Shown here piece after piece: positions 49,010 to 52,272 of a stretch of DNA of 64,000 nucleotides. Position 1 is the first letter of the stretch. The number at the start of each line of letters is the position of its first letter. Where the stretch lies: NCBI RefSeq assembly GCF_002024165.1, contig NZ_MWQN01000001.1, forward strand, positions 372,001 to 436,000. Reading direction: 5' to 3'. A program made the position numbers and the translations under genes. The stretch is from Embleya scabrispora (GTDB taxonomy: Bacteria > Actinomycetota > Actinomycetes > Streptomycetales > Streptomycetaceae). The notes below the pieces were generated by a model. That model had not been told where the DNA came from and did no database searches. It was given only the letters and a program-made list of their open reading frames with translations.

Positions 49010-49552
49010 TCACCGCACCCAGCCGGTGTACCGCTGCCTGCCGCGCGACGTGCCGCGCCGTTCGCGCCCGCGCTCCTCGACGGGGTCGAGCGCGGCGGCC
49101 ACCGTACGGGTCAGCCAGGCGTTGACGGACAGGCCCGCCCGACCGGCGGCCTGTTCGATCCGAGGCTTGATGTGCTCGGCGAGCCGGAGCGTGATCCGCG
49201 CCGTACCGCCCTCCTCGGGCTCCGGCACGGACGCGGCGGGCGGCGGCCCGGGGCGCTCGTCCGGCTCGTCGTCGAAGGCACCTCCGCCGCCCTCCTCGAA
49301 CGAGCGAGCGGCCGCCGACGACACCACGAAGTCCGGGTCGAGCCCCCGCAGCCGCATGTCGACCGACCCCGGCGCCAGGTCGCGGCTGATCTCGTCGGCG
49401 GCGGCGGACAACGCACTCAGCAGCGCAAGCCTGGTCGCCGATTCGAGCGGCCCGATCAACCGCTCGGCAAGCGCCCGCGCCTCCGCACCATTCGCCTCGG
49501 CGGCAACCGCCAGTTCACGACAGAGCTTGTCGACATACGGCGTGAGGTCCAT
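49010..49552 (-). CDS. Ribbon-helix-helix (Arc/CopG/HicB-like) DNA-binding protein
   Basis: This 180-residue protein has an N-terminal helical dimer region (YVDKLCRELAVAAEANGAEARALAERL), an acidic Gly/Pro linker, and a C-terminal RHH domain (TARITLRLAEHIKPRIEQAAGRAGLSVNAWLTRTVAAAL). The RHH strand ARITLRL should insert in the DNA major groove. ATG at 49552 lies in the first of several TGACGTCA palindromes, which suggests autorepression. The DUF4097 gene follows downstream. Confidence 0.82.
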   Translation of the reverse strand: MDLTPYVDKLCRELAVAAEANGAEARALAERLIGPLESATRLALLSALSAAADEISRDLAPGSVDMRLRGLDPDFVVSSAAARSFEEGGGGAFDDEPDERPGPPPAASVPEPEEGGTARITLRLAEHIKPRIEQAAGRAGLSVNAWLTRTVAAALDPVEERGRERRGTSRGRQRYTGWVR

Positions 49553-49625
49553 GACGTCATCATGACGCCACAATGACGTCATGGCAAGCCCAACACCCCC
49601 ACCCTTCGACGCCACATGACGTCAC
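49551..49625. promoter_or_regulatory. TGACGTCA palindrome array over the start of the RHH gene
   Basis: TGACGTCA occurs at 49552-49559, 49574-49581 and 49617-49624, with a degenerate TGACGCCA at 49563-49570. The first three are spaced exactly 11 bp, one helical turn. The first covers the start codon. RHH proteins typically bind such phased repeats in multiple copies. Confidence 0.72.
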
Positions 49626-49688: not shown

Positions 49689-49715
49689 GCCCACCCCACA
49701 ACTCCGACGCACCAC
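49689..49715 (+). repeat. Flanking direct repeat, left copy
   Basis: This 27-bp sequence (GCCCACC...CACCAC) matches 51124-51150 at 26 of 27 positions, in the same orientation. The two copies lie just outside the inverted repeat arms. Confidence 0.6.
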
Positions 49716-49791
49716 CCCACCGACGACCGCGAAGCCACGATCACCTCACCAGCGGCGGGCAGGGGGCAGGTTGGGCCGGGTTCCCGAGGGA

Positions 49792-50237
49792 CCTTCCCGA
49801 GTGGCCCGGATGTCCCCGACGAACGTCGCGCTTGTGGTTGCGGGTGGCCGGTGCGGGGCCGGTCCGAGTCGGTGGTGGGCCGCCGCCAGCGTTCGGGGCT
49901 CCAAGACTTGAAGCCCCCGACGAGACGTGCGTGTTGCTCGGCGAAAACCGGCTGGCAACGGGGGCAGGCAGGGCGGCCGGGTCGAGTCCCCCGGGGCGCC
50001 TTCCCGAGTGGGTCGGGCGTTTTCGCCGGGCGGTGCGCTTGTGGTTGCGGGTGGCCGGTGCGGGGTGTGTCCGAGTCGGTGATGGGCCGCCGCCGGCGTT
50101 CGGGGCTCCGAGATGTGGGGCTCCCGACGAGACGGACGTGTTGGTCGGCGAAAACCGGCTGGCAGCGGGGGGCAGGGAGGGCGCTCGGGTCGAGTCCTCC
50201 GAGGAGCCTTCCCGGCTGGGTCGGGTGGTTTCGGGAG
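49792..50237 (+). repeat. Left arm: tandem repeat of 207 and 208 bp plus a partial third unit
   Basis: Unit 1 is 49792-49998 (207 bp) and unit 2 is 49999-50206 (208 bp). A partial unit runs from 50207 to about 50237. Each contains the landmarks CTTGTGGTTGCGGGTGG, GGCCGCCGCC and GAAAACCGGCTGGCA. One extra G in unit 2 (GGCAGCGGGGGG) breaks the reading frame, which argues against coding. The arm reappears inverted at 50602-51047. Confidence 0.85.
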
Positions 50238-50376
50238 TGCGGTGGGCGTGTGGGTGACGAGGGTTCACGAACCCGGACCGCGTGAAGAGCTGTTGCCTCG
50301 GCGTGAGGGAAAACCGCAGGTCAGTGCCATCGGGTGGCTGCTTCGGGCGCCTCGCGATCCGGTTTCGGCGCCTACT

Positions 50377-50505
50377 GGGCGCTTTTGGTCTTCGCGACGG
50401 CCTATGAGGGGTCGGAGCACCCGAAGCCGGCTCCGAACGGGCGGTTTCAGTCTCCGCACGGGCGTCGAGGGGTCAGAGCATACGAAACCGGCACTCGACG
50501 CCTGA
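50377..50505 (+). repeat. Two degenerate ~62-bp repeats in the centre
   Basis: Copies starting at 50377 (GGGCGCTTTTGGTCT) and 50439 (GGGCGGTTTCAGTCT) share the order GAGGGGTC-GAGCA-CGAA-CCGGC. They are clearly less similar than the outer arms. The centre also contains two related GCAGGTCA elements (50318 and 50530). Confidence 0.45.
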
Positions 50506-50601
50506 CTTTCCGCCCCGGCCACGCAAAATCGCAGGTCACCGAAGCTCGAAGCCCACATCCACCCATCGCGATCGGTTTCGAACCTCAGCCCCTCCCAACG
50601 G

Positions 50602-51047
50602 CCCCCGAAACCACCCGACCCACTCGGGAAGGCTCTCCGGAGGACTCGACCCGGCCGCCCTCCCTGCCCCCCGCTGCCAGCCGGTTTTCGCCGAGCAACA
50701 CGCCCGTCTCGTCGGGAACTCCATGTCTAGGAGCCCCGAACGCTGGCGGCGGCCCATCACCGACTCGGACAAGCCCCGCACCGGCCACCCGCAACCACAA
50801 GCACACCGCCCGGCGAAAGCACCCGACCCACCCGGAAAGGCGCCCCGGAGGACTCGACCCGAGCGCCCTCCCTGCCCCCGTTGCCAGCCGGTTTTCGGTG
50901 AGCAACACGTCCGCCTCGTCGGGAACCCCACATCTCGGAGCCCCGAACGCCGGCGGCGGCCCACCACCGACTCGGACACACCCCGCACCGGCCACCCGCA
51001 ACCACAAGCACACCGCCCGGCGAAAACGCCCGACCCACTCGGGAAGG
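50602..51047 (-). repeat. Right arm: inverted copy of the two-unit repeat
   Basis: Read on the minus strand, unit 1 is 51047-50841 (207 bp), unit 2 is 50840-50633 (208 bp) and a partial unit ends near 50602. Unit-specific differences match the left arm: GGTGGTGGG and GGCAACGGGGG in both first units, GGTGATGGG and GGCAGCGGGGGG in both second units. The whole arm was therefore duplicated in inverted orientation. Confidence 0.85.
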
Positions 51048-51123
51048 CGCCCCTGACAAACTCGACGACTCCAACGCCCTTACCGGCTCATCGCCGTCTC
51101 GACCGCCCGACCCCGCCTCGCCT

Positions 51124-51150
51124 GCCCACCGCACAACTCCGACGCACCAC
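51124..51150 (+). repeat. Flanking direct repeat, right copy
   Basis: This is the right-hand copy of the 27-bp repeat at 49689-49715, with one mismatch. It lies 77 bp beyond the right arm. Confidence 0.6.
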
Positions 51151-51423: not shown

Positions 51424-52272
51424 GTGAGTGAGAACGAGCTTGGTGGCTTCCTCCGTGACCGGCGCGCGGCGGTCACGCCTGCCGAAGTCGGGCTGCCCGA
51501 CGGGCCCCGGCGCCGTGGCCCGGGGCTGCGGCGGTCCGAGTTGGCGGGCCTGGCGGGGGTCAGCGTGGAATACCTGGCGCGGTTGGAGCAGGGGCGCGAC
51601 CGACGTCCCTCCGGCCAGGTACTGGCGGCGCTCGCCGACGCGCTCCGGTTGACCCCGGAGGAGCGGGTCCACGTGCGTCTGCTCGCCAGGGCCGCCACCG
51701 GCAACGCGTTCTCGTACGCGGCGGTCGAGCCGCCCACGCGCGGAATCCGGCCCACCGTTCGCGCCCTGCTCGACCGGCTCGAACCGGCCCCCGCGCTGCT
51801 GGTCGACCGGCTCGGCGACGTCCTGGCGTTCACCAACGGCTACGAGCGGCTGGCCCGCCCCCTCGGCATCCTCGACCCGGACCAACCCAACCTGGCGCGC
51901 TACGTGTTCACCGATCCCCGGGCCCGCGCCGCCTACCCAGACTGGGAGCAAATAGCCGACGAACACGCCGCGATCCTGCGCACGGCCGCCTCGTTCGCCG
52001 ATCCCTACGTCCAGGACTTCCTGGACGGCCTCGCGATCATCGCCGGCACGGTGTTCAGCCGCCGGCTTGCCGCGCCGGCCACCCCGCCGCGCCGGGTCGG
52101 CGTGGAGCGGCTGGCCCACCCGGAGGCGGGCGAACTGCGCCTGGAACGCGAGATCCTGGACCTCGCCGACGTCGACCAGACGCTGGTCGTCTACCTCCCC
52201 TGCGACGAACCCACCTCCGCCGCACTCGACCACCTCACCGGCCGCCACCCGGGCGCGCTGCGCGCGGTCTGA
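51424..52272 (+). CDS. XRE-family regulator with MmyB-like ligand-binding domain
   Basis: This 282-residue regulator has an N-terminal helix-turn-helix (RRRGPGLRRSELAGLAGVSVEYLARLEQGRD) and a C-terminal MmyB-like domain (PALLVDRLGDVLAFTNGYERLA, NLARYVF). It closely matches the general plan of the XRE protein at 23732-24595. TAGACT (51411-51416) ends 7 bp before the GTG, so the mRNA is probably leaderless. No divergent partner gene is adjacent; the repeat region lies upstream. Its target is unknown. Confidence 0.87.
   Translation: MSENELGGFLRDRRAAVTPAEVGLPDGPRRRGPGLRRSELAGLAGVSVEYLARLEQGRDRRPSGQVLAALADALRLTPEERVHVRLLARAATGNAFSYAAVEPPTRGIRPTVRALLDRLEPAPALLVDRLGDVLAFTNGYERLARPLGILDPDQPNLARYVFTDPRARAAYPDWEQIADEHAAILRTAASFADPYVQDFLDGLAIIAGTVFSRRLAAPATPPRRVGVERLAHPEAGELRLEREILDLADVDQTLVVYLPCDEPTSAALDHLTGRHPGALRAV

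What the first reader, a model, noticed from the sequence alone, without database searches (positions are those of the whole stretch)
49689..51150. Giant palindrome built of inverted pairs of 207/208-bp tandem repeats
Two arms of 446 bp (49792-50237 and 50602-51047) are inverted copies of each other. Each has one 207-bp unit, one 208-bp unit and a 30-bp stub. Unit-specific variants correspond between arms, so the dimer was copied as a whole. The arms are separated by about 360 bp containing other degenerate repeats and flanked by 27-bp direct repeats (26/27 identical). A frame-breaking G argues against protein coding. I recognise no transposon, REP, CRISPR or origin of this form. It may be a non-coding RNA locus, a recombination product or an unknown mobile element.
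Basis: seen in the sequence. Interest (0 to 1): 0.75.

Follow-up and report, generated by a model that had tools for sequence, protein, structure and literature searches.

The report
Fold-back mobile repeat family in Embleya
The giant palindrome is one of about 40 copies of a non-coding, probably mobile DNA element scattered through one Embleya genome, whose mirror-image arms grow by tandem duplication much like the fold-back transposons known from animals.

Summary
The palindrome is real but not unique. In 36 of 40, ~208-bp units point inward from both sides onto an asymmetric ~446-bp core; four lack one or both arms. They are intergenic by a heuristic gene caller. E. hyalina has the family too, at 12 of these sites; no match outside Embleya was found. 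A rule made after inspection finds, at 18 of 75 arm ends, a shared terminus, CYGAGGTTTGCGCTTTTGGTTGCGG, preceded by TA in 7 (background 1%). Several sites are empty in relatives. Best reading: a non-autonomous DNA transposon of fold-back architecture whose arms expand into small satellite arrays after insertion, then decay. No transposase or exact target-site duplication was found; RNA covariation is absent. CGAAAACCGG occurs 140 times in the elements, never in 317 kb of flanks: a candidate binding site. New variant of a known kind.

The parts
49791..49988 (+). arm unit A, outer left
   Evidence: profile hit, 178 bits
49998..50196 (+). arm unit A, inner left
   Evidence: profile hit, 181 bits
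50198..50641 (+). asymmetric core with two direct copies (spacing ~215) of a block holding CGAAnCCGG and AAAACCGCAGGTC
   Evidence: core profile, 415 bits; 40 loci in the genome; spacing
50643..50841 (-). arm unit A, inner right
   Evidence: profile hit, 181 bits
50851..51048 (-). arm unit A, outer right
   Evidence: profile hit, 174 bits
49942..49951 (+). conserved motif CGAAAACCGG (candidate binding site)
50149..50158 (+). conserved motif CGAAAACCGG
50681..50690 (-). conserved motif CGAAAACCGG
50888..50897 (-). conserved motif CGAAAACCGG
49689..49715 (+). 27-nt flanking direct repeat, left; not found at the other fetched loci
   Evidence: 26/27 identical; motif scan of fetched loci with up to 3 mismatches
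51124..51150 (+). 27-nt flanking direct repeat, right

Best explanation
It is one old copy of a non-autonomous DNA transposon family with fold-back architecture. SHOWN: 40 dispersed copies without predicted genes; inverted arms of 208-bp units around a shared asymmetric core; similarity between copies confined to the element; a common terminus on some copies; some sites empty in relatives. INFERRED: the ancestral element was about 0.8 kb (like L047): terminus, one arm segment, core, inverted arm segment, terminus. A transposase supplied in trans moved it, perhaps one that targets TA (IS630/Tc1 type, recalled). After insertion a segment running from the terminus to the edge of the core was duplicated, giving 208-bp units; unequal exchange lengthened the arms, exchange between and within arms partly homogenised them, and old copies lost their termini. 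The recurring CGAAAACCGG sites were probably bound by the transposase or a host protein.
For: 173 unit matches in the genome; the first 27 loci, taken from a list that was cut, all show the same convergent layout; 40 core loci, 36 with both arms. In the five of six closest core pairs that gave BLAST hits, similarity stays within about 25 bp of the element edges. 18 of 75 arm ends carry the terminus; before it TA 7, TG 5, CA 3, other 3; background TA 0.99%, p=2.6e-10. The terminus (26 nt, up to 3 mismatches) hits 13 places in NF3, 0 in 296 other Streptomycetaceae genomes, reversed-pattern control 0. Empty sites: L033 in two other Embleya genomes, L108 and L041 in E. hyalina, L040 and L114 in Embleya sp. 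NBC_00888. Loci shared with hyalina: 0 of 12 with a terminus, other loci 14 of 28 (Fisher p=0.0027); shared loci have more unit hits (mean 7.2 against 4.8, p=0.022). Unit identities: neighbours in one arm 0.854 (108 pairs), mirror partners 0.842 (63), between loci 0.787 (12,516).
Against: No element with these ends and a transposase was seen: the terminus search found only family sequence; transposase genes themselves were not searched for. No exact pre-insertion site or target duplication could be read, because intergenic DNA diverges too fast. 57 of 75 ends show no terminus, including both ends in the window. The terminus rule and the TA count were made after I had looked at the ends, so their p-values are too kind. 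TA could be part of the element. Cores at six orthologous sites are only 75-79% identical, little closer than non-orthologous cores, while aligned flank pieces are 90-98% identical. Conserved columns exceed a uniform-rate expectation (100 against 19), more than plain decay of dead elements predicts. One unit fragment at a contig end of G003 shows that the family is not confined to NF3 and hyalina.
Confidence: 0.7

Rival explanations
1. The arrays are functional host sites: clustered binding sites for a DNA-binding protein (nucleoid organisation, segregation or regulation), kept by selection at intergenic positions.
For: Columns conserved in 27 NF3 cores differ at 45 of 577 positions between six orthologous NF3/hyalina pairs, variable columns at 278 of 642; CGAAAACCGG 140 times inside elements, 0 in 317 kb of flanks; the secondary chromosome of E. 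australiensis is reported without parS sites like the chromosome's.
Against: The core was not found in two of the four Embleya genomes held (G003 has one unit fragment) and the element not in two Embleya secondary replicons. Density differs widely: 11 loci on 1.25-Mb C2, 3 on C3, 1 on C4, 25 on 7-Mb C1. No single orientation to neighbouring genes. Several copies are degraded or core-deleted. The mismatch rates are also what random pairs from one pool would give, so they do not prove selection after insertion.
Confidence: 0.15
2. The locus makes a long hairpin RNA and the palindrome is selected for base pairing.
For: The transcript could fold back over both arms; consensus folds are more stable than column shuffles on the minus strand (z -4.1 for A, -4.6 for the core) and less so on the plus strand (z -1.4, -2.3).
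Against: No covariation in A (z 0.33 and -0.36) or core (z 0.85 and -0.18). Mirror partners (0.842) are no closer than neighbours in one arm (0.854). Arm lengths are unequal, e.g. 1 and 4 units in L037. No Rfam match.
Confidence: 0.04
3. The palindromes are assembly or recombination by-products without a mobile origin.
For: Inverted repeats favour rearrangement; a core-deleted derivative exists (L123); two loci have flanking direct repeats.
Against: PacBio reads with an N50 near 29 kb should span elements of at most 3.2 kb; family sequence lies at 12 orthologous sites of an independently sequenced species, both arms on one contig at 6; a shared core in 40 intergenic places needs a copying process.
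Confidence: 0.04

Closest known systems
Tetris, fold-back transposon of Drosophila virilis (PMC4079207; abstract and sections 17 and 19 read)
   Same: Non-autonomous; long terminal inverted repeats built of ~220-bp tandem units; the unit shares a short stretch with the terminal domain; variable unit number; transposase not found.
   Different: Eukaryote; target duplications of 8-10 bp reported; arrays reach kb-size satellites. No sequence relation was tested.
Galileo (P superfamily), Drosophila (PMC3573991; passages read)
   Same: Long inverted repeats that lengthen by ~210-bp direct repeats, in different numbers in the two arms; such repeats are proposed as secondary transposase sites.
   Different: Has a known transposase; eukaryotic.
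BrickBuilt MITE of Porphyromonas gingivalis (PMC4596501; abstract and outline read)
   Same: Bacterial, intergenic, multi-copy element with a tandem array.
   Different: 23-nt units in one array between small inverted ends; no mirrored long arms.
Bacterial MITEs in general (recalled)
   Same: Non-coding, terminal inverted repeats, intergenic, lineage-specific.
   Different: Larger (433-3154 bp by profile hits, the largest with an insert), arms of several 208-bp units, no partner insertion sequence found.
REP/BIME repeats (recalled)
   Same: Intergenic, palindromic arrangement, many copies.
   Different: REP units are short; units here are 208 bp and converge on a fixed core.

Membership tests
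Fold-back transposable elements (structural class) | Long inverted arms built of internal tandem repeats, variable in length, around a loop domain | tested here: met
   36 of 40 loci have both arms; 0 to 7 unit hits per arm, partial ones counted
Fold-back transposable elements (structural class) | Shared termini distinct from the inner repeats | tested here: met
   18 of 75 ends, by a rule made after inspection; 13 terminus hits, all at family sequence
Fold-back transposable elements (structural class) | Target-site duplication | tested here: inconclusive
   TA before 7 of 18 termini, but no exact empty site
Bacterial MITE | Non-coding, multi-copy, intergenic, terminal inverted repeats | tested here: met
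Bacterial MITE | Autonomous element with the same ends | tested here: not met
   No hit outside the family in 297 genomes at up to 3 mismatches; lost or more diverged partners not excluded
IS630/Tc1-mariner derived element | TA duplication and a DDE transposase acting on these ends | tested here: inconclusive
   TA only; no transposase search was made; TA targeting is recalled
Structured non-coding RNA | Covarying base pairs or an Rfam match | tested here: not met
CRISPR or tRNA-type repeats | Short direct repeats with unique spacers, or a tRNA fold | tested here: not met
   repeat layout; no tRNA

The most novel reading that the evidence does not exclude
A bacterial fold-back transposon lineage that seeds small satellite arrays and whose repeated CGAAAACCGG sites have been taken over by the host as protein-binding arrays on both the chromosome and the secondary chromosome of Embleya, in a genus whose secondary replicon lacks recognised parS sites.
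Probability: 0.1. Interest if true: 0.85.

Novelty: new variant of a known kind. Interest (0 to 1): 0.6.

Why it matters
Fold-back elements with roughly 210-220-bp tandem arms are described from animals as sources of satellite DNA and inversions. The rows shown by my searches (capped lists) held no bacterial case of this build. If confirmed, the same architecture and nearly the same unit length arose in bacteria, with about 40 copies at different stages (terminus-bearing, expanded, core-deleted, decayed), so that the birth of satellite arrays could be studied in a small genome. Many contigs of the fragmented E. hyalina assembly begin or end in these repeats.

Tried and rejected
RNA hairpin: no covariation; the folding z-scores (minus strand -4.1 and -4.6, plus strand -1.4 and -2.3) are reported as evidence the other way.

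Element-encoded recombinase: a perfect terminus at C3:1105762 lies beside a frameshifted recombinase fragment. Matches in 129 plasmid records, 119 of them Streptomyces, are recombinase genes; the three that I opened end about 45 bp further on. Only about 44 positions of the arm unit remain at the NF3 site, so it was not accepted as the parent element. The 1.8-kb insert in the core of L040 resembles plasmid DNA, with integrase genes under some matches, and is read as a later insertion.

Exact target site: tried at L021, L033, L040, L041, L077 and L108; L114 is element-free in NBC_00888 but without a readable junction; for L047 only the left flank was found in hyalina; for L113 no usable flank was found. 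No junction could be read to the base. The 27-nt direct repeats of the window are not general: among 40 loci only L021 and L107 stand clear of the cross-locus scores.

Replichore pattern of core orientation on C1: none seen by eye, not tested. Stretches between arm units in hyalina elements: no common insert beyond edges of 32-41 nt.

My first count by eye put a terminus on 17 of 28 non-shared loci (note); the fixed rule gives 14 of 28, which is reported.

Rows dropped before counts: one overlong core (L040) from the core alignments; hyalina flank matches under 88% identity; 6 of 26 cores and 27 of 87 units from the RNA test; unit pairs with fewer than 120 aligned positions; one of seven orthologous core pairs for short length.

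Full report
OBSERVATION. The palindrome is in the sequence as described: arms 49792-50235 and 50604-51047, 88% complementary, units spaced 207/208. The 27-nt direct repeats match at 26 of 27 positions. One correction: the closest cross-arm units are out of register (inner left against outer right 96%; mirror partners 91% and 83%), which fits exchange of single units rather than copying of the dimer. No tRNA and no Rfam family at its gathering score lies in the window.

A GENOMIC FAMILY. The 208-bp unit has 173 matches in the same genome (the printed list was cut). The first 27 loci, taken from that list, all show units pointing inward from both sides onto a spacer. That spacer is a conserved, asymmetric core of about 446 bp with two direct copies (spacing about 215) of a block containing CGAAnCCGG and AAAACCGCAGGTC. 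Searching with the core gave 40 loci: 25 on C1, 11 on C2, 3 on C3, 1 on C4. 36 of 40 have both arms; at the profile threshold L105 has core only, L107 and L110 the minus arm only, L116 the plus arm only. The 40 loci hold 221 unit hits, partial ones included, and 60,289 bp. By my heuristic gene caller none of the 40 contains a gene apart from one call inside the insert of L040, and one weak call overlaps an end by 5 bp (L116). In the 26 of 27 first loci where both neighbours were called, neighbour orientations were -+ 4, +- 5, ++ 6, -- 11. Core orientation is 14 plus and 26 minus.

HOST AND RANGE. Of 297 Streptomycetaceae genomes in 17 genera, 3 had a unit match at E<=1e-10, all Embleya: NF3, hyalina and one fragment at a contig end of G003; that search scored only two candidates per genome. 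The core matched 2 of 4 Embleya genomes. G003 has 1,650 contigs, so absence of arrays there is not safe. An exact pattern scan of 84,980 genomes returned three stretches, all E. hyalina; the tool warns that records near the window's own genome may be left out. Viral contigs (exact pattern), plasmids and phages (blastn) gave none; the plasmid set includes two Embleya secondary replicons, 5.7 and 3.1 Mb. NF3 was sequenced with PacBio reads (passages). The NF3 genome paper counts 156 repeat regions without, in the passages that I saw, describing these (PMC5813959).

ENDS. Outermost units of a subset of loci begin with a terminus that inner units lack. A rule made after that inspection finds it at 18 of 75 ends, in 14 loci. 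The preceding dinucleotide is TA 7, TG 5, CA 3, other 3, against 0.99% TA in the flanks (p=2.6e-10, post hoc). A 26-nt terminus pattern with up to 3 mismatches has 13 hits in NF3 and none in 296 other genomes; the reversed control has none. Nine hits fall at eight of the 40 loci; three mark truncated copies (L132, L134, L136) and one a short end fragment beside a plasmid-type recombinase remnant. The window locus itself has no recognisable terminus. L047 has termini at both ends and one unit per arm; it is my model of the minimal element, about 0.8 kb. The first stretch of the core resembles the start of the unit, so a duplication from terminus to core edge would give the 208-bp unit; that step is inference.

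TURNOVER. Twelve of 40 loci have family sequence at the same place among the 25 hyalina stretches that I compared: both arms on one contig at six, partial arrays, contig ends or remnants at the others, and only one flank matched for L037. At the window site hyalina keeps only two decayed units, 25 and 38 bits against 174-181 here. Shared loci: 0 of 12 with a terminus, others 14 of 28 (p=0.0027), and shared loci have more unit hits (mean 7.2 against 4.8, p=0.022). 'Not shared' means no partner among the fetched stretches; it was tested directly, and borne out, for L041 and L108, and was inconclusive for L047. L033 is empty in two further Embleya genomes; L040 and L114 are element-free in NBC_00888. 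A core-deleted derivative sits in NF3 at a site where hyalina has an element with core (L123 against L077). L023 carries the same truncation in the inner units of both arms. L022 and L025, with cores 95% identical, share about 1.8 kb at 87% but not flanks, so expanded copies also spread. Unit identities: neighbours in one arm 0.854, mirror partners 0.842, other cross-arm pairs 0.816, between loci 0.787.

AGAINST MY READING. No transposase with these ends was found, and transposase genes were not searched for. No exact empty site or target duplication was read. Cores at six orthologous sites are 75-79% identical; against the mean of the other hyalina cores they are 1 point below in one case, equal or up to 5 points above in five, and the single closest in one (L045), while aligned flank pieces are 90-98% identical, pieces under 88% having been dropped. 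Intergenic change or conversion has erased most locus history. Conservation is very uneven: 100 of 441 core columns are at least 95% conserved in 27 NF3 cores against 19 expected under one rate, and 85 against 23 in 26 units; those conserved core columns differ at 45 of 577 positions in orthologous pairs, intermediate ones at 263 of 1,354, variable ones at 278 of 642. CGAAAACCGG occurs 140 times in 60 kb of elements and 0 times in 317 kb of flanks. This fits binding sites, for a transposase or a host protein; random pairing within one pool would give similar mismatch rates, so selection after insertion is not proved.

RNA. Consensus folds show no covariation in 60 of 87 non-redundant units or in 20 of 26 cores, both strands (z from -0.36 to 0.85). 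Folds are more stable than column shuffles on the minus strand (z -4.1 and -4.6) and weakly so on the plus strand (z -1.4 and -2.3).

LITERATURE. Tetris has ~220-bp tandem units within its inverted arms and no known transposase (PMC4079207). Galileo arms lengthen by ~210-bp repeats, independently in the two arms (PMC3573991, passages). The nearest bacterial case in the rows shown is BrickBuilt, a MITE with a 23-nt minisatellite (PMC4596501, abstract). The rows shown (capped lists, titles and starts of abstracts) held no bacterial fold-back family and no report of this repeat. The main text of the Embleya secondary-chromosome paper (PMC13152386: abstract, sections 23 and 24, passages) contains neither 'palindrom' nor 'intergenic'. 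A prokaryotic MITE review contains neither 'foldback' nor 'tandem' (PMC10969869, word search only).

VERDICT. An old copy of a lineage-restricted, non-autonomous, fold-back-type mobile element whose arms mature into small satellite arrays: a new variant of a known kind. The link to TA-targeting transposases is suggestive only.

Noticed in passing
window 49551-49625: Cluster of TGACGTCA palindromes at and upstream of the start of a gene (49010-49552, minus) with weak HicB- and NikA-like matches below cut-off; largely conserved in E. hyalina. Possibly its own operator sites.
   Followed up: no
L116:7260-7788: Frameshifted plasmid-type recombinase fragment ending at a perfect copy of the family terminus.
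   Followed up: partly
L040:4995-6772: 1.8-kb insertion in the core resembling Streptomyces plasmid DNA, with integrase genes under some matches.
   Followed up: partly
L076, L080, L081, L087, L119 (E. hyalina): Elements interrupted by stretches of about 500-690 bp between arm units; apart from edges of 32-41 nt in three of them the stretches are not alike.
   Followed up: partly
C2 of the host genome (part of the secondary chromosome): 11 of 40 loci lie on a 1.25-Mb contig, a far higher density than on the 7-Mb chromosome with 25.
   Followed up: no
L107: 58-bp imperfect direct repeat flanking the element.
   Followed up: no
window 51424-52272, plus strand: MmyB-like regulator (MLTR_LBD and helix-turn-helix domains) to the right of the element.
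   Followed up: no
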